A stretch of DNA of 64,000 nucleotides from Sphaerochaeta halotolerans (lineage in GTDB: Bacteria > Spirochaetota > Spirochaetia > Sphaerochaetales > Sphaerochaetaceae): contig NZ_QUWK01000007.1 of NCBI RefSeq assembly GCF_003429665.1, positions 62,001 to 126,000 on the forward strand, written 5' to 3'. The notes below the pieces were generated by a model, which saw only the letters and a program-made list of their open reading frames with translations, did not search any database and was not told the DNA's origin. Position numbers and translations under genes: made by a program. This document shows positions 20,895 through 34,350 of the stretch, piece by piece. Each line of letters begins with the position of its first letter. The stretch's first letter is position 1.

Positions 20895-22166
20895 CTAGCG
20901 AGACAAGAGTGAGAATCTCAGTGATAATGCATCGATGGGCTTGTCACCGATACTTGCTCCGTATTCCTGTATGGAATAAGCCGCATCAATGTGGAAGATC
21001 AGGAGATCTAATCCAGCACCGATGGACTTGTAGCCCTGGCTGATACCACCACGTACATCAAGAATGCTCAGCAATCTTACCGATGCTCCGAGGCGGGTCT
21101 GTTCGAAGAATGCACGCTTCAGATCATCACCCTGCAGTCCACCCATTGACGTGATATCTACAACATCCACGGCAAGAACGGGTCTGACCAGGGAACCAAT
21201 ATCTGGTACCCAGGTAAGTCCTGCATCCAGTCTCCAATCGGACTCGATAGTCCACTCATCCTCAAGTATAGAGGAGGATGGTGTTACATCAGCATCATCG
21301 GTAAGTCTATCGCCAAGCACCTCATAGGCCCAATCATTGACTGAGTTATAGGTGGTCATCTTATAATTACCGTTGAAGTTCTTTGCCGCTACAGAGAGGG
21401 TCAATCCAGCTGGGAAGTTCACGTTAATACCAGCAGAGATTGGGAGAGCATAGCCGGCAATTAGAGGGGTACTACCGATAAAAGTACCCTCAATATCTGG
21501 ATCATCTTCAGCCATCATATCGGTAATGGAAGATGCACTTTGGGCTTCATAGTATGCCTTGTACACAGCCTGGGCTGTTAGACCAAGGTCGATGCTGATC
21601 TTTTCAGGTACAATACCAATTCTGAAGCCGAGTCCAGCAGTAGCTGCTGTGGTTACCTGGGCAATCAGGTTGGTACTCATCATGTCAGCACCAGTCTTAT
21701 AGGACATAAGGCGTTCCTGAGCTTGCAAGGACAATCCAAAGCTTCCAATCGTCAAAGTGGTGGAAACATCGGTTGTCAGTACGTCTCCATATCCTTTCTT
21801 GATGGTTGCCAAGAATTTCTGAGCACCACTTATCATGGAATCATCTGTTCCTTCTTCAAAATCTTCAATCGCCCCACTCTCCAAGATTGCCTTGGGACTG
21901 TAAGCAATAACGGTTACCGATGGGAAAGTGAACTTGAATCCACTCTTGGTTAGGTTAGCTGGGTTGATGAGGAAGCTATCATGATAGCCTTTCACACCCA
22001 GTCCTGCACCACCCATGCCCATTGCCCGCACGCTCGTTCCCACAAAGGGTTCAGCTACTTGGGCATAGACAACATTCGAATCAGGGTCGTATGCACTCAC
22101 TGCAAGCAGAGGAGCCGCAACCATGAACAATGCAACCATTGTAATTATTGTTATTTTCGTCTTCAT
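20895..22166 (-). CDS. FadL/PorV-like outer membrane beta-barrel protein
   Basis: A 423-residue secreted protein. Signal peptide at residues 1-~25 (hydrophobic core ITMVALFMVAAPLLAVSA). After it, SVRAMGMGGAGLGV...HDSFLINPANL is the N-terminal signature of FadL/PorV/UPF0164-type barrels, followed by many alternating amphipathic strands (e.g. LDVRGGISQGYKSIGAGLDLL). The C-terminus LSLRFSLLSR is strand-like but does not end in Phe. The transported molecule is unknown. It follows the lipoprotein gene by 14 bp and shares its operon. Confidence 0.75.
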   Translation of the reverse strand: MKTKITIITMVALFMVAAPLLAVSAYDPDSNVVYAQVAEPFVGTSVRAMGMGGAGLGVKGYHDSFLINPANLTKSGFKFTFPSVTVIAYSPKAILESGAIEDFEEGTDDSMISGAQKFLATIKKGYGDVLTTDVSTTLTIGSFGLSLQAQERLMSYKTGADMMSTNLIAQVTTAATAGLGFRIGIVPEKISIDLGLTAQAVYKAYYEAQSASSITDMMAEDDPDIEGTFIGSTPLIAGYALPISAGINVNFPAGLTLSVAAKNFNGNYKMTTYNSVNDWAYEVLGDRLTDDADVTPSSSILEDEWTIESDWRLDAGLTWVPDIGSLVRPVLAVDVVDITSMGGLQGDDLKRAFFEQTRLGASVRLLSILDVRGGISQGYKSIGAGLDLLIFHIDAAYSIQEYGASIGDKPIDALSLRFSLLSR

Positions 22167-22180
22167 GATATCTCTCCTCC

Positions 22181-23650
22181 TTAATTACTCTCTGAATCCC
22201 AATCATCATAGATGGATTGGAGACTATCTTCGGCTGATGGTTTCAATAAGTCATCCAACAGCTCATCGAGCTGAGCAATACCGTTGATTGAATTGAGTGA
22301 TTTCAAATTCTTCACGATTGACTCATAGTACTCATAGGTTCTTTTCATTCCTTCTGTCCCATCATGTAAGAACTGCTCAAACCCATCATAGGAGAAATCT
22401 GTAATGTCCGGTTCAACCGGTTCATAATCTTCAGGCATCGTTCCAAGACCAATCTCTGGATTATCGTCAAGCAACTCGGCAATAATCGCCTCAGGTCTCG
22501 GAGAAGTGATTTCCTCACTCATCCAATATGCATGATGTTCAGTAAAGATTACCGAGATAAGATACTTGATCAAGGTTGAGGTATCGAAGTTCGCATTCGG
22601 GACTTCAGAAAGCTCCAATTCACTCTTTCTAGCAAATTGCAGAGCATGCTCAATAGAACCACGATAGGCTTTCTGATTCCTGAGGAAACTCTGGTACTTC
22701 GCCTTTGTATAGTCGAAATCATTTCCAGTGTGCGTTATTCCCATGACAGGAAGCAAATCGGGGATCAGATCATTGAGAGAGACCAGAATATCTCCAAACT
22801 CATTATCACCCTCTGCTCGGGAAATAGATTGACTGGTATCATCATTCATTCCAGAAAGCAGTGCTGCCAAATCCAACTGACCAGAGAAGTCGATACTTGC
22901 TGCTCCTGAGAGTTGCTCAGCTACTTGGGCAGTGAAGAGAGCATCGTCTACAATAGAGAGTACTTTTTCTTTGTTTTCTGCTTTAGTTATGTCGATACTA
23001 GTAAAGGAATCATTGCTATCATCTGTATCCAAATTAGTTACCGTATTAGTAATAAGGTTGGTCATCATCTGGAGGATCAAGATATCACCTTGGGTCAACC
23101 CCTCTCCTTGTTCAATCTCAGGAAGGGCAAGCTCTGCGAGGGTACTCTTTAAGTCTTCATCAGTCAATTGACCCTGGAGTGCAGTCAGAGTTGCATTGAA
23201 GAGCTTCACTGTTCCCTCCGCAGCAGTTTTCTGTTCACCTGATGCAGGAGCCTTCAAGGATTCTACCAGTTGCTTGGTCTGAGTTGGGGAAGCAAAAGCG
23301 GTTGCAAGATCGTCTTTTATTGCTTTTTGCTCATCTTCAGTCTGGGGCTTGATGATTGTAGTAACATCACCAGGAACGGTCACTGAAATTCCAATACCAT
23401 AAGGATCAGCAGTGCTATCTTGGCTGCTACTCACATCTATAGCCGAACCTCCTGTTCCAATACTTGCAGTGGTTGTTGTCACTGCAGTAGCATTGGCTGT
23501 ATTGGGCTCAACCATTCCGCTTTCTATGTATACATTACCACTAAAATCACCCATTAAACCTGCGATGTCTTGGCGGATACTAGCATCACATGAGGTGAAT
23601 GCCAGGGTCAGCAGTAGCACCGACAAGATAGGTATTAGAGCCTTTTTCAT
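22181..23650 (-). CDS. Lipoprotein of unknown function
   Basis: A 489-residue lipoprotein. The signal peptide MKKALIPILSVLLLTLAFTSC ends in a lipobox with Cys21, so it should be lipid-anchored on the outer side of a membrane. The mature N-terminus is Thr/Ser/Ala-rich and low in complexity (residues ~45-75), and the rest is acidic and largely helical (e.g. DYEPVEPDITDFSYDGFEQFLHDG). I do not recognise a domain. It is the first gene of a two-gene operon with the FadL-like barrel, suggesting a paired envelope function. Confidence 0.75.
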   Translation of the reverse strand: MKKALIPILSVLLLTLAFTSCDASIRQDIAGLMGDFSGNVYIESGMVEPNTANATAVTTTTASIGTGGSAIDVSSSQDSTADPYGIGISVTVPGDVTTIIKPQTEDEQKAIKDDLATAFASPTQTKQLVESLKAPASGEQKTAAEGTVKLFNATLTALQGQLTDEDLKSTLAELALPEIEQGEGLTQGDILILQMMTNLITNTVTNLDTDDSNDSFTSIDITKAENKEKVLSIVDDALFTAQVAEQLSGAASIDFSGQLDLAALLSGMNDDTSQSISRAEGDNEFGDILVSLNDLIPDLLPVMGITHTGNDFDYTKAKYQSFLRNQKAYRGSIEHALQFARKSELELSEVPNANFDTSTLIKYLISVIFTEHHAYWMSEEITSPRPEAIIAELLDDNPEIGLGTMPEDYEPVEPDITDFSYDGFEQFLHDGTEGMKRTYEYYESIVKNLKSLNSINGIAQLDELLDDLLKPSAEDSLQSIYDDWDSESN

Positions 23651-25923: not shown

Positions 25924-26658
25924 TCATCCACCTATGGAAACATCAGATCGATCCTCAACAGCAAATTCGTACATAAGTCCGTTGAAGACCTTGGTACACC
26001 TTCCAATTACCGTCCCATCATCGAGGACGCAGAGCCCTCTGCACCAGAGGCTTGCAGAATTGCAATCGATATCAAGTTGCTTACAGATTTCCTCATTAGG
26101 GTTGATGGCAGCCACCTTTCCCTGGACGAAATGGCACTTTTGGCCGATATGCAAACTCACCAAATCGAAAAAGGATCGTTCGCTCTCATCATCAAGAAGG
26201 GATATCTCTTGTCCAAACCTTGAAGTGACATAGTAATCGCTTAAAACTGAGGGTTTACCGTCCACGATATGCAAACTCTTGAAATGCCAGAGCTCAGTCT
26301 CTGTAGGATCATCAGATACGTGCATCTTTTCACGATCTGCATGCGATACTTCCAGCTTCTCTTTCAAAATGATCTTGTAGTACCCATCATTCTCGGTTTC
26401 TTTCCCTTCAATCTTTACCTGGGGATATCCAAGACCCACCACTTTCCGTTTGAACAGCACGAAGGACCCTCTTCCACGGGTACGGGAAATGTAACCTTGA
26501 CGGACCAACCCGTCCAGAGCACGCCTGATAGTGACACGAGAGACCCCATATTGTTCACAGAGTTCCATCTCAGTAGGAATGCGATATCCCTCTGGCCATT
26601 CCCCGAAAATGATCTTCATCTGCAATTGTGAAAAAACAGTCTTGAATTTCAGTGCCAT
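25924..26658 (-). CDS. GntR-family regulator with UTRA domain (HutC subfamily)
   Basis: A 244-residue regulator. The winged helix-turn-helix is at residues ~8-72 (YRIPTEMELCEQYGVSRVTIRRALDGLVRQGYISRTRGRGSFV), followed by a UTRA ligand-binding domain (SDYYVTSRFGQEISLLDDESERSFFDLV) that in this subfamily binds sugar phosphates, amino acids or similar small effectors. GGGAGGAG before the ATG at 26658 supports this start over the ORF-track start at 26682. It is divergent from the encapsulin operon across a 400-bp region with several palindromes and probably controls itself and/or that operon. Its effector is unknown. Confidence 0.87.
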   Translation of the reverse strand: MALKFKTVFSQLQMKIIFGEWPEGYRIPTEMELCEQYGVSRVTIRRALDGLVRQGYISRTRGRGSFVLFKRKVVGLGYPQVKIEGKETENDGYYKIILKEKLEVSHADREKMHVSDDPTETELWHFKSLHIVDGKPSVLSDYYVTSRFGQEISLLDDESERSFFDLVSLHIGQKCHFVQGKVAAINPNEEICKQLDIDCNSASLWCRGLCVLDDGTVIGRCTKVFNGLMYEFAVEDRSDVSIGG

Positions 26659-26699
26659 GGTGTGCTCCTCCCATTTGTGCAAGATTTAGGAGTAAAATG

Positions 26700-26714
26700 T
26701 ATACTATCAGTATA
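26700..26714. promoter_or_regulatory. Palindrome before gntR, candidate autoregulatory operator
   Basis: TATACT-ATC-AGTATA, a perfect 6-bp inverted repeat 42 bases upstream of the GntR start, where self-repression by HutC-type regulators usually occurs. Confidence 0.45.
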
Positions 26715-26828
26715 ATACAAATCGGTTTCCCGTTCAGTAAGGATTTTGTCTTATTTGAAAGATACTTTCAATACTAAAAAGCTATATTTCTGTACTAATT
26801 GCGATATTTATGAAATACTAATATTTTT

Positions 26829-26866: not shown

Positions 26867-26918
26867 AAGACAAAGAATAATGGATAGAGACACCTGAAAG
26901 ATACAAAACCCAAAGGCC

Positions 26919-26928
26919 TTGTATACAA
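26919..26928. promoter_or_regulatory. Perfect palindrome TTGTATACAA
   Basis: A 10-bp palindrome about 130 bp before the EncFtn start, similar in style to operators of sugar-responsive GntR/UTRA regulators (the TreR type). Confidence 0.35.
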
Positions 26929-27061
26929 CTTATCTATGCAAAATAACGTTGTTCTAAATCTAATTTCTAGCAACTCATAAGATTTTTGCTTCTCAGGTCT
27001 TTCTTTATTGCTAAACCATGAGTATCATTATAGTAATACAAAGTCTTATTAGGAGGATAGT

Positions 27062-27406
27062 ATGGCATATAGTGAACCTTATGATGCAATTGACGAGAAA
27101 ACGCGGGACATTTCCCGTGCAATCACTAGCCTTCGCGAAGAACTTGAGGCTATCAACTGGTACAACCAACGGGTAAATACCACCAAAGATACCGAGCTTG
27201 CTGGAGTTATGGCACACAACCGCGATGAAGAAATTGAGCATGCTGTCATGGCCATCGAATGGCTGAGACGCAACATGGACAAGTGGGATGATGAACTTAA
27301 AACCTACCTTTTCAGCAGTGGTAGCTTACTCGGAGTGGAAAAAGCCGGAGAAGGCGGCGAAAGTTCTTCTGCTCCTTCTCTTTCAATTGGTGATCTGAAG
27401 AAATAA
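27062..27406 (+). CDS. Encapsulated ferritin-like protein (EncFtn)
   Basis: A 114-residue two-helix ferritin-like protein, the cargo of an encapsulin shell. Ferroxidase ligands expected for EncFtn are present: Glu27 and Tyr34 in REELEAINWYNQRVN and Glu57 and His60 in NRDEEIEHAVM. The protein forms a ring in which two subunits share a di-iron site. After the second helix a Gly/Ser/Ala-rich linker leads to the C-terminal SLSIGDLKK, matching the family's encapsulation peptide. Iron oxidised here would be stored in the shell lumen. AGGAGG precedes the ATG at good spacing. The encapsulin gene follows after 21 bp. Confidence 0.95.
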   Translation: MAYSEPYDAIDEKTRDISRAITSLREELEAINWYNQRVNTTKDTELAGVMAHNRDEEIEHAVMAIEWLRRNMDKWDDELKTYLFSSGSLLGVEKAGEGGESSSAPSLSIGDLKK

Positions 27407-27427
27407 GAATGTCCAGGAGGTATTTAT

Positions 27428-28213
27428 ATGGATATGTTCAAACGTGAATTAGCGCCCCTCTCCTCGGAGGCTTGGGCAGAAATAGAAAACAGGGTAAGCG
27501 AGGTTTTACTCTCTCGTCTCACCGCTCGTAAAGTAGTTAACGTAAACGGGCCAAAGGGAATAGACTTCACTGCCATCAGCGAAGGACGTCTCTCATTGGT
27601 TGATGATGGCGATGTGAAGGCTGGAATCTACACAGTAAAACCCTTGACGGAAGCCAGAATTCGTTTTTCCCTCAATAAGTGGGAACTGGATAACCTAGCA
27701 CGTGGTGCAAAAGACATTGATTTTGACAGCCTAGACTCTGCTATTGAAAAACTGGCACTGTTCGAAGAACGAGCCATCTATGATGGTTATGAGAAAGGTG
27801 GAATCAAGGGGCTGAAGGAATCGAGTGGGCATAAGGCACTGACCTTTGGCAAGGAATCCAGTGACATTCTTGCCTCAATTGCTGAAGGCCTTATCTTGCT
27901 CAAGAAGAGTTATGTCCAAGGCCCCTACTCCCTTATTGTAGGAAAAGAAGGATGGATTGCACTGAACAAAGAATCCTATGGGCAGAATCTGCTTGAAAGA
28001 GTAGAGAGGATGCTTGGAGGGAAGGTGGTCTACTCGCCAAATATCGAGGGAGCACTGCTGCTTCCCTTTGACAGCAAAAATCTTGAGCTGACTATCGGAC
28101 AGGACTTTTCCCTGGGCTATGAGACCCATGACACCAAGGAGGTAATCCTCTTTGCAACAGAGTCTTTCACCTTCAGGGTATTGGAACCCAAGGCAATTGT
28201 AGTCTACAAGTAA
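27428..28213 (+). CDS. Encapsulin shell protein, family 1
   Basis: A 261-residue HK97-fold shell protein of the linocin M18/CFP29 family. The N-terminal MDMFKRELAPLSSEAWAEIENRV is the typical start, whose amphipathic helix and pocket bind the cargo peptide. The E-loop (VDDGDVKAGIYTVKPLTEARIRFSLNKWELDNLARGAKDIDF) and C-terminal FLVLEPKAIV-like end (TFRVLEPKAIVVYK) also fit. Its length suggests a T=1 60-mer, though that is inference. GGAGG stands 8 bases before the ATG. With EncFtn it forms a two-gene operon closed by a strong terminator. Confidence 0.95.
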   Translation: MDMFKRELAPLSSEAWAEIENRVSEVLLSRLTARKVVNVNGPKGIDFTAISEGRLSLVDDGDVKAGIYTVKPLTEARIRFSLNKWELDNLARGAKDIDFDSLDSAIEKLALFEERAIYDGYEKGGIKGLKESSGHKALTFGKESSDILASIAEGLILLKKSYVQGPYSLIVGKEGWIALNKESYGQNLLERVERMLGGKVVYSPNIEGALLLPFDSKNLELTIGQDFSLGYETHDTKEVILFATESFTFRVLEPKAIVVYK

Positions 28214-28242: not shown

Positions 28243-28275
28243 AAGGCCGGATTCATCGTCCGGCCTTCTTTATGT
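28243..28275 (+). terminator. Terminator of the encapsulin operon
   Basis: AAGGCCGGA (28243-28251) pairs perfectly with TCCGGCCTT (28259-28267), followed by CTTTATG. Confidence 0.85.
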
Positions 28276-31967: not shown

Positions 31968-32153
31968 CTAGAATCCGTGGTAACCAGCTTTCCGGGCCTT
32001 GTGGGCCTCCTTATCCCAGGCCAGGAGTATGTCGGACGAAGCCTGCTCAAGCTCCTCGTTGATGTTTTGCACCAGTGTTTCGTACTCGTCACTGGAGAAT
32101 GAATGCTCTTCCCTGAGTGTTTGCAGGGTTTCTTGTCTCTCCCACCATTTCAT
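31968..32153 (-). CDS. Small IS-encoded ORF downstream of transposase
   Basis: A 61-residue helical, charged protein (MKWWERQETLQTLREEHSFSS...). I do not recognise it. The ATG at 32153 overlaps the transposase stop as ATGA, and GAGAGG lies about 11 bases upstream; the ORF-track start at 32225 would lie inside the transposase. It ends 29 bp inside the left IS terminus. The coupling suggests it is expressed with the transposase. Confidence 0.5.
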   Translation of the reverse strand: MKWWERQETLQTLREEHSFSSDEYETLVQNINEELEQASSDILLAWDKEAHKARKAGYHGF

Positions 32154-33589
32154 GACTCGTAATCCTCTCTGGGTTTGGCGATATGACTCGCCAGCACCTT
32201 TGGTGAGAGGAATCTCGTTCTCCATGGATGGTCTGGTGCAGGCGTGGAAGACTTCCTCTTACTGGGTGCAGGTCGTTGCTCGGGGTCGAATTCCTTGCTG
32301 TGGCTGCTCCGTTTCTCCACCTCCCTGAGCAGGTATATCTCATCCTTGATGCTGGCCAGCAGCGTCCCGTCGAAGGCCTTGACGACGAGGGCCTTGGTGT
32401 CCTTGGCGAAAAGCCGGGGGCGCTGGGAGGACGAATCCTGTGCATAGGGCTGGTAGTAGGCGTTGTGGTACTTGATGCTGTGGCCCGCATCGATGACCCG
32501 GTTGGAGACCACCGCCAGGATTGCATTGATGTCGGCATCGGGGGGGGCTTGGAGGAAGGTGCCGGACTGTACATCCTTCTCATCCTTGAGCGAGAATTGT
32601 GCATTGAAACGGGGAAGATAGTCCCACAGGAAGGTGTTCGCCGCCTCCATGGTGGTGATTCCGTGGCGCAGAAGCTCGACCGGGATACGGCCTTGGAGCG
32701 TTCTGTTCATTCTCTCCACACGACCCTTGACCTGAGGTACCGAGGTGGCCTCGAGCTCGATGCCCAATGTCTTGCAGGCGGCTCCGAACTGGGTGAAGGT
32801 GTCCTTTTCCTCATCGGGTTTGGAGAGGGACTTGTACTCGAAGACGGTCCTTCGGTCGGTCCTGAACCGCGAGGGGATGCCGTAGAGCTTGAGAATCATG
32901 TACAGGACGTGGTAATAGCCGTCCAGCGTCTCCTGGGTGTCGAACCAAGCCCCCACCACCTCGCTGGTTGCATCGTCGACGGCCACATGCAAGTGCCATT
33001 TCCCGGCCCCCTTGGCCCAGACCAGCTCGCTGGCGTCCATCTGGATCATCTCCCCGAAGTATTTGCTCCGCGGCCTGCGCGGATGCGCGTCGGCGTCGTC
33101 CAGGATTGCCATGGCTGCATTTATTTTCTCGCTTTCGGCCTTGCTCAGGTGCTCCTTCCGTGCAAGCATCCTCAATCTCTTCTCCATCAGCCTCTTGGTC
33201 GCCTTCTTCGAGCAGGGCGAGACGAGCATGGCCTGCTTGAGGATCGAATGCACCGTCCCGTCGGAGAGGCTGACACCGTGGTCCTCCTTGAGTATCTCCA
33301 AAAAATGGGTGAAACTGGCGGTGCAGTAGGTGTCCTTGTACAGCCTCTCGACCAGCTCCCTCGTATCCTGCGGTATGGTGGTGGCGGGCTTGCGGCCCTT
33401 GTTGCGGTGACTGAACCGGGATATGTCTTCGTTTTTGCACCACTGCACGTACTTCAGGAGCGTCTTTCGGGTGCATCCCAGCCTCGCCCGGCCCCTCCTG
33501 ACGGCCGTGTCGGTGCAGCCGAGGTCGATGACATCCTTGGCGGTGGTGTACTTTTCCTGCTCGTTCGGTCTCAAATCCTTCAATTCCAT
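32150..33589 (-). CDS. DDE transposase (ISNCY/IS1202-like, rve integrase core)
   Basis: A transposase of about 479 residues. N-terminal helix-turn-helix segments (residues ~15-55, ~90-115) bind the IS ends. The catalytic core has IQMDASELVW (first Asp, ~185), FRTDRRTVFEYK (second Asp, ~240) and KGRVERMNRTLQGRIPVEL (Glu, ~290), an rve-type DDE triad. A C-terminal Lys/Ser/Pro-rich region follows. The upstream ORF ends in GGAGGATGA; that GGAGG is well spaced for the second in-frame ATG at 33589 (MELKDL), though 33598 is also possible. The gene looks intact. Confidence 0.88.
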   Translation of the reverse strand: MELKDLRPNEQEKYTTAKDVIDLGCTDTAVRRGRARLGCTRKTLLKYVQWCKNEDISRFSHRNKGRKPATTIPQDTRELVERLYKDTYCTASFTHFLEILKEDHGVSLSDGTVHSILKQAMLVSPCSKKATKRLMEKRLRMLARKEHLSKAESEKINAAMAILDDADAHPRRPRSKYFGEMIQMDASELVWAKGAGKWHLHVAVDDATSEVVGAWFDTQETLDGYYHVLYMILKLYGIPSRFRTDRRTVFEYKSLSKPDEEKDTFTQFGAACKTLGIELEATSVPQVKGRVERMNRTLQGRIPVELLRHGITTMEAANTFLWDYLPRFNAQFSLKDEKDVQSGTFLQAPPDADINAILAVVSNRVIDAGHSIKYHNAYYQPYAQDSSSQRPRLFAKDTKALVVKAFDGTLLASIKDEIYLLREVEKRSSHSKEFDPEQRPAPSKRKSSTPAPDHPWRTRFLSPKVLASHIAKPREDYES

Positions 33590-33594
33590 CTCAT

Positions 33595-34350
33595 TCATCC
33601 TCCCCGGGGCGGCTTGCGCCGTTCTGCACCCTCCTCAGCGAGGGGTTCCTGCAGATTCTCGTCCCTGGGGCCGATCGTAGGGCCGATGAGGTCGAGGAAG
33701 ATGCAAAGGTTGTTGGATTGTGTGTAAAAGAGGTCCAGCACGTACCGCAGCCACGACTCGCCGCACCCCTTGAGGAATGCTGTAAGCGCACAAGCGATTT
33801 CGTATTCCGAGAGGCTGCGGCCGATGTAACGATGGATTTCCTCGACCACCGACGCCCACACCTTGCGCAGCCACGACCGCCAGTAGGACCTGGTGCGCGG
33901 GCTTGCAAGGCAATAGTCAGCCTTGTTCTCCAGCACAGAGCGAATGTCGCCCAGGCAATACTGCTTGTTCCTGACAAGGTCGTCGCCGTAGACTGTCGAG
34001 TAGCTGCCATCCTCCGGGCAACGGCCGACGGCAACGATTGTCGTTTCCACCGCCGGGCCTTCCTCCGCCGTGTATCGTTTGCCCCTCTTGCGCGAGAAGG
34101 CATACTCCAGCGCTCCGATGCATGTCCGGCACAGCATGGCGCCGTTGCCCGTCCTCAAGGATGGATGGAAGTTCTCTTGAATCGAAGCTGTTTCGATGGT
34201 AGTGTGTCTATAGTGTTTATGATGAAGGGGAAGTCTTTGCAGTGTACTAACAAAGACAAAGGGCTTCCTCTTCATTTCTCCTTCAGGGATCCTCTCCCTT
34301 GGTCTTCCTTTCATTAAACCACATATCTCAAACAGACAGGCAAAAATCAT
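33595..34350 (-). CDS. IS-encoded accessory protein with a CxxC motif, unknown function
   Basis: Up to 251 residues, no recognised family. A possible zinc site is MLCRTCIGALEYAFSRKRGKRYT (~92-115), with further Cys in GRCPEDG and QYCLGD. The C-terminal half (RSLSEYEIACALTAFLKGCGESWLRYVLDLFYT) is helical. Its stop overlaps the transposase ATG (ATGA), so the two are coupled. Three candidate starts (34350, 34314, 34275) lack good ribosome binding sites; the longest is given. It lies wholly inside the IS and is probably a transposition partner or DNA-binding accessory. Confidence 0.6.
   Translation of the reverse strand: MIFACLFEICGLMKGRPRERIPEGEMKRKPFVFVSTLQRLPLHHKHYRHTTIETASIQENFHPSLRTGNGAMLCRTCIGALEYAFSRKRGKRYTAEEGPAVETTIVAVGRCPEDGSYSTVYGDDLVRNKQYCLGDIRSVLENKADYCLASPRTRSYWRSWLRKVWASVVEEIHRYIGRSLSEYEIACALTAFLKGCGESWLRYVLDLFYTQSNNLCIFLDLIGPTIGPRDENLQEPLAEEGAERRKPPRGG

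What the first reader, a model, noticed from the sequence alone, without database searches (positions are those of the whole stretch)
27062..28213. Encapsulin nanocompartment with encapsulated ferritin
EncFtn with ferroxidase residues Glu27, Tyr34, Glu57, His60 and a C-terminal SLSIGDLKK peptide precedes a family 1 encapsulin by 21 bp. The system stores iron or limits iron-driven oxidative damage. Such pairs are known, but records in spirochaetes are few and the regulation here is unexplored.
Basis: partly seen in the sequence, partly recalled or inferred. Interest (0 to 1): 0.7.

Follow-up and report, generated by a model that had tools for sequence, protein, structure and literature searches.

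The report
Ordinary iron-storing encapsulin operon in Sphaerochaeta
A spirochaete (most likely Sphaerochaeta) carries an intact but textbook two-gene system: a small iron-oxidising protein and the virus-like protein shell that packages it. The system is already well known in other bacteria and is common in this genus.

Summary
EncFtn lies at 27062-27406 (+) and a family 1 encapsulin at 27428-28213 (+), 21 nt apart, each with its own AGGAGG. Both pass curated NCBIfam cut-offs. The ferroxidase residues E27/Y34/E57/H60 are the R. rubrum E32/Y39/E62/H65. They are invariant in 21 homologues, as are the entry-site glutamates E26/E29. The C-terminal SLSIGDLKK matches the cargo-docking peptide seen in the Haliangium structure (GSLGIGSLR) and is conserved behind a variable linker. 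The shell is closest to T=1 Thermotoga encapsulin and keeps its flavin-stacking Trp (W85). This is a new member of a known kind.

"Few in spirochaetes" needs correcting: 39 of 393 spirochaete genomes pass the encapsulin cut-off, and 11 of 13 good genomes of this genus have a match.

Regulation stays open. A conserved block (TGAGTATYAT...) ending about 20 nt before the start codon is Fur-box-like (14/19 here, 16/19 in one relative), but the genome's two Fur-family genes look PerR-like and Zur-like. The divergent GntR gene travels with an acyl-CoA synthetase even where the encapsulin is absent, so it is not shown to control this operon. Some relatives carry broken copies or remnants.

The parts
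27062..27406 (+). encFtn: encapsulated ferritin-like protein, 114 aa, ferroxidase residues E27, Y34, E57, H60; entry-site residues E26, E29
27377..27403 (+). C-terminal cargo-loading peptide SLSIGDLKK
   Evidence: only match to the degenerate peptide pattern in the whole genome
27428..28213 (+). family 1 encapsulin shell protein, 261 aa; predicted T=1; R77 and W85 correspond to T. maritima R79 and flavin-stacking W87
27414..27420 (+). ribosome-binding site (AGGAGG region) of the shell gene inside the 21-nt gap
   Evidence: read directly
27019..27039 (+). conserved promoter-proximal block TGAGTATCATTATAGTAATAC: -10 region and/or Fur/PerR-type box
   Evidence: unique in own genome at up to 3 mismatches
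28243..28267 (+). intrinsic-terminator-like hairpin after the shell gene (10 pairs, 6 GC)
25924..26658 (-). divergent GntR/UTRA (HutC-type) regulator; likely start is ATG 26658, not TTG 26682; belongs with the acyl-CoA synthetase, regulatory role on encFtn not shown
26709..26721 (.). gntR-side conserved element AGTATAATACAAA (promoter or auto-operator of gntR)
26918..26931 (.). conserved CTTGTATRCAACTT, possible GntR-family operator; unsupported beyond the close relatives

Best explanation
This is a two-gene operon for an iron-handling encapsulin nanocompartment. EncFtn should form a ring-shaped decamer whose di-iron ferroxidase centres sit at the interface of paired subunits. Its C-terminal SLSIGDLKK should dock it on the inner wall of a 60-subunit, roughly 24-nm T=1 shell. 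Fe2+ would enter through shell pores, be oxidised to Fe3+ at E27/Y34/E57/H60 and be mineralised inside. This would store iron and limit Fenton chemistry in an anaerobe. The ORFs, residues, peptide, gene order and selection are shown here; decamer, shell, loading, flavin binding and iron mineralisation are inferred from solved relatives.
For: Curated family hits for both genes. Solved homologues: EncFtn of R. rubrum and N. europaea, shells of T. maritima and H. ochraceum; T=1 shells score far above T=3 ones. All ferroxidase and entry-site residues are invariant in 21 homologues, and the tail is conserved behind a variable linker (entropy 0.84 vs 1.70). The docking peptide seen in the Haliangium cryo-EM map is GSLGIGSLR (PMC8791618). 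encFtn-enc order with a 9-27 nt gap in 20 of 21 loci (58 nt in the other). Only one shell gene and one peptide match in the genome, and no DyP peroxidase.
Against: No structure or biochemistry was run. The genome also has a classical ferritin, so this is not the only iron store. Several relatives carry a broken shell gene, a remnant or no match, so it is dispensable in some species, though some of these are draft assemblies.
Confidence: 0.95

Rival explanations
1. The shell serves mainly a redox or peroxide-defence role, with EncFtn as a ferrous-iron sink during oxygen exposure, controlled by a PerR/Fur-type repressor at the promoter-proximal block, rather than being an iron reserve.
For: A classical ferritin is present besides EncFtn. 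The block overlapping the likely -10 is Fur-box-like: 14/19 here (shuffle P about 0.01) and 16/19 in G326. A PerR-like gene next to rubrerythrin is in the genome.
Against: In several relatives the match is no better than shuffles (L058, L064, L067). No such box lies upstream of the PerR-like gene, and the block has no second copy in the genome.
Confidence: 0.3
2. The divergent GntR/UTRA protein is the dedicated regulator of the encapsulin operon.
For: Divergent neighbour in most loci of the genus, with conserved elements in the shared intergenic region.
Against: gntR stays with the acyl-CoA synthetase gene where encapsulin is absent next to it (L068 beside a Cas9-like ORF, L071 with only an EncFtn remnant) and in another genus (L074). 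L006 keeps the synthetase but not gntR beside encFtn. The gntR-side element persists without encFtn.
Confidence: 0.15
3. The operon is decaying and non-functional in this lineage.
For: Shell frame broken in G442/L005 and G460/L070; remnant in G439/L071.
Against: Both genes are intact in the window with low dN/dS and full catalytic residues; 11 of 13 good genomes of the genus have a match.
Confidence: 0.03

Closest known systems
EncFtn-encapsulin of Rhodospirillum rubrum (Rru_A0973, PDB 5DA5) and Haliangium ochraceum (7OE2)
   Same: Same cargo family, same ferroxidase residues, same type of C-terminal docking peptide
   Different: Spirochaete host; different neighbours; roughly half-identical sequence; cargo tail SLSIGDLKK instead of SLGIGSLR
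Thermotoga maritima encapsulin (3DKT, 7KQ5), T=1 flavoprotein shell
   Same: Best shell match, same length class (261 vs 264 aa), R77/W85 at the flavin-site positions
   Different: Well under half identical by the printed alignment; flavin binding not tested here
EncB-family ferritin-like cargo encapsulins of Brachyspira-like spirochaetes (f29/g79, e.g. L041; genus is my inference)
   Same: Family 1 shell following a ferritin-like cargo with a C-terminal peptide
   Different: Cargo belongs to NF058679 (EncB_fam), 29% identical to this one; shell also distant

Membership tests
Encapsulated ferritin (EncFtn, TIGR04535/PF22277) | Profile match above curated cut-off | tested here: met
   144.7 bits vs 125; Pfam 134.8 vs 27
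Encapsulated ferritin (EncFtn, TIGR04535/PF22277) | Ferroxidase residues Glu, Tyr, Glu, His and entry-site glutamates | tested here: met
   E27/Y34/E57/H60 and E26/E29 align with R. rubrum residues; invariant in 21 homologues
Encapsulated ferritin (EncFtn, TIGR04535/PF22277) | C-terminal cargo-loading peptide | tested here: met
   SLSIGDLKK, conserved L-x-I-G-x-[LM]-K; Haliangium GSLGIGSLR
Encapsulated ferritin (EncFtn, TIGR04535/PF22277) | Annular decamer with ferroxidase activity | not testable with these tools
   Needs purified protein
Family 1 encapsulin (NF041155) | HK97-fold shell protein, profile above cut-off | tested here: met
   262 bits vs 100; solved homologues cover the full length; fold inferred from sequence, no model was predicted
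Family 1 encapsulin (NF041155) | Cargo gene next to shell gene, same strand | tested here: met
   21-nt gap; same order in all 21 homologous loci compared
Family 1 encapsulin (NF041155) | Self-assembly into T=1 shell of about 24 nm loaded with cargo | not testable with these tools
   Predicted from closeness to T=1 shells
Fur-regulated promoter | Fur box at the promoter and a Fur protein in the genome | tested here: inconclusive
   14/19 match here; two FUR-family genes look PerR-like and Zur-like by neighbours

The most novel reading that the evidence does not exclude
The encapsulin is tied into regulation not described for encapsulins: a GntR/UTRA protein, perhaps with a fatty-acid-type ligand, or a PerR-type repressor couples acyl-CoA synthesis and iron sequestration from one shared divergent promoter region.
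Probability: 0.07. Interest if true: 0.45.

Novelty: new member of a known kind. Interest (0 to 1): 0.2.

Why it matters
It adds a clean spirochaete example of the EncFtn type and shows that one phylum uses two distinct encapsulated ferritin-like cargo families (EncFtn in Sphaerochaeta-type genera, EncB-family in Brachyspira-like genera). The genus has intact and broken copies side by side, which could be used to ask what the compartment is for in anaerobes that also have a classical ferritin. No paper naming both encapsulin and Sphaerochaeta was found in the open-access library searched.

Tried and rejected
GntR as dedicated encapsulin regulator: rejected as the leading view, because gntR stays with the acyl-CoA synthetase where encapsulin is absent. 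Canonical Fur regulon: inconclusive; the Fur19 match is strong in one relative only and no other copy of the block exists in the genome. A second cargo elsewhere in the genome: the peptide pattern gave only EncFtn, and no DyP was found; the pattern is narrow, so a divergent cargo could be missed. Encapsulin as the sole iron store: rejected, since a classical ferritin is present. RNA elements near the operon: only the tRNA-Gly. No structure prediction was run, because solved homologues were close enough.

Full report
Observation. EncFtn is an ORF at 27062-27406 and the encapsulin one at 27428-28213, both on the + strand, with 21 nt between stop and start. Each start codon has an AGGAGG a few bases upstream, and a terminator-like hairpin follows the shell gene at 28243-28267. 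The 21-nt gap is too short for a separate promoter, so an operon is the natural reading (inference). EncFtn passes the curated cut-off of TIGR04535 and matches PF22277 at 9.2e-40; the shell passes NF041155 and matches PF04454 at 2.3e-77. The shell gene is single-copy in this 2.9-Mb genome.

Residues. The phmmer alignment to R. rubrum EncFtn has an offset of 5, so E27, Y34, E57 and H60 are E32, Y39, E62 and H65, the iron ligands of the crystal structure, and E26/E29 are the proposed entry-site glutamates E31/E34 (PMC5012862). All six, plus W33, are invariant in 21 homologues from Sphaerochaeta-type genomes, other spirochaetes and Peptoniphilus.

Docking peptide. The last nine residues, SLSIGDLKK, resemble the Haliangium EncFtn peptide GSLGIGSLR that was built into a cryo-EM map on the inner shell wall (PMC8791618). 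In the 21 homologues, mean column entropy is 0.58 in the ferritin domain, 1.70 in the linker and 0.84 in the tail. I and G of the tail are invariant, and L107 and K113 nearly so. A conserved tail behind a loose linker is what a docking peptide should look like.

Shell. The best solved relatives are the T=1 shell of T. maritima (2.8e-56) and then that of H. ochraceum; the T=3 shell of Myxococcus (EncA) is far weaker (about 3e-5). This supports a T=1 shell; the T numbers of these named shells are from established knowledge. R77 and W85 correspond to T. maritima R79 and W87. Trp87 stacks on the flavin there and is thought to be retained in close relatives only (PMC8086157); the R79 role is from memory. 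Flavin binding here is an inference.

Distribution. Named relatives are Sphaerochaeta and related spirochaete MAGs, with Peptoniphilus stercorisuis the only non-spirochaete among the ten. Of 393 spirochaete genomes, 43 have a match and 39 pass the shell cut-off. In the window's own genus 17 of 26 genomes have a match, and 11 of 13 well-assembled ones. So 'few records in spirochaetes' holds for the papers searched, not for the genomes.

Loss. G442/L005 has a shell reading frame disturbed in its middle, G460/L070/L011 keeps only pieces of the shell, and G439/L071 has an EncFtn remnant upstream of gntR. Some of these are draft assemblies, so single frameshifts may be sequencing errors; the larger losses are less easily dismissed.

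Regulation. In the close relatives a block TGAGTATYAT...ATAC...GTCTTA sits just before the ribosome-binding site. It probably contains the -10. Against the 19-bp Fur box it scores 14 here (P about 0.01 in shuffles of this 80-nt region, uncorrected for several motifs and loci) and 16 in G326, but only 11-12 in some others. It occurs once in this genome at up to 3 mismatches. The two FUR-family genes are beside a rubrerythrin (PerR-like) and beside an ABC metal-transporter operon (Zur-like), judged by neighbours only. Iron- or peroxide-responsive control is therefore plausible and unproven.

The GntR neighbour. A GntR/UTRA gene diverges from encFtn across most of the genus. Its own conserved upstream element AGTATAATACAAA persists, exactly or nearly, where the neighbour is a Cas9-like ORF (L068) or an EncFtn remnant (L071), with the acyl-CoA synthetase gene downstream. 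In L006 the synthetase gene lies next to an intact encFtn without gntR between them. The natural partner of gntR is therefore the acyl-CoA synthetase. Control of encFtn by GntR is possible through the shared region but is not supported.

Function. The most likely role is ferrous-iron oxidation and sequestration inside the shell. A classical ferritin is also present, no DyP peroxidase is, and no second cargo peptide was found. Whether the compartment is a reserve or a stress sink cannot be told from sequence.

Verdict. Confirmed and ordinary: a new member of a known kind, with a modest comparative point about two cargo families in one phylum and an open question of regulation.

Noticed in passing
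window 32150-34350 (-): Insertion-sequence-like pair: an integrase-core ORF (PF00665, weak) and a 251-aa ORF behind it with no Pfam hit, in a stretch of 58% GC against about 47% around it; probably a recently arrived IS21-like element (type from memory).
   Followed up: partly
window 22181-23650 and 20895-22166 (-): Two consecutive long ORFs with no Pfam match; the first starts with a lipoprotein-like signal (LLTLAFTSCDAS).
   Followed up: no
L068 2502-4880 (+): A Cas9-like ORF stands next to gntR-acyl-CoA synthetase at the place where encFtn stands in other members of the genus (judged by the N-terminal sequence only).
   Followed up: no
L007, L018, L019 upstream of encFtn: In related genera an Hsp20-type small heat-shock gene lies directly upstream of encFtn on the same strand (judged by sequence, no profile run).
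   Followed up: no
L042 1486-2450: PerR-like gene followed by rubrerythrin in the window's own genome; no Fur/PerR box at the thresholds used.
   Followed up: partly
L042 92-1327: Long ORF with many near-identical RPSGDRPSYRDRDD repeats just upstream of the PerR-like gene.
   Followed up: no
window 25924-26682 (-): The longest-frame TTG start of gntR is probably not the real one; homologues and an AGGAG motif point to ATG 26658.
   Followed up: yes
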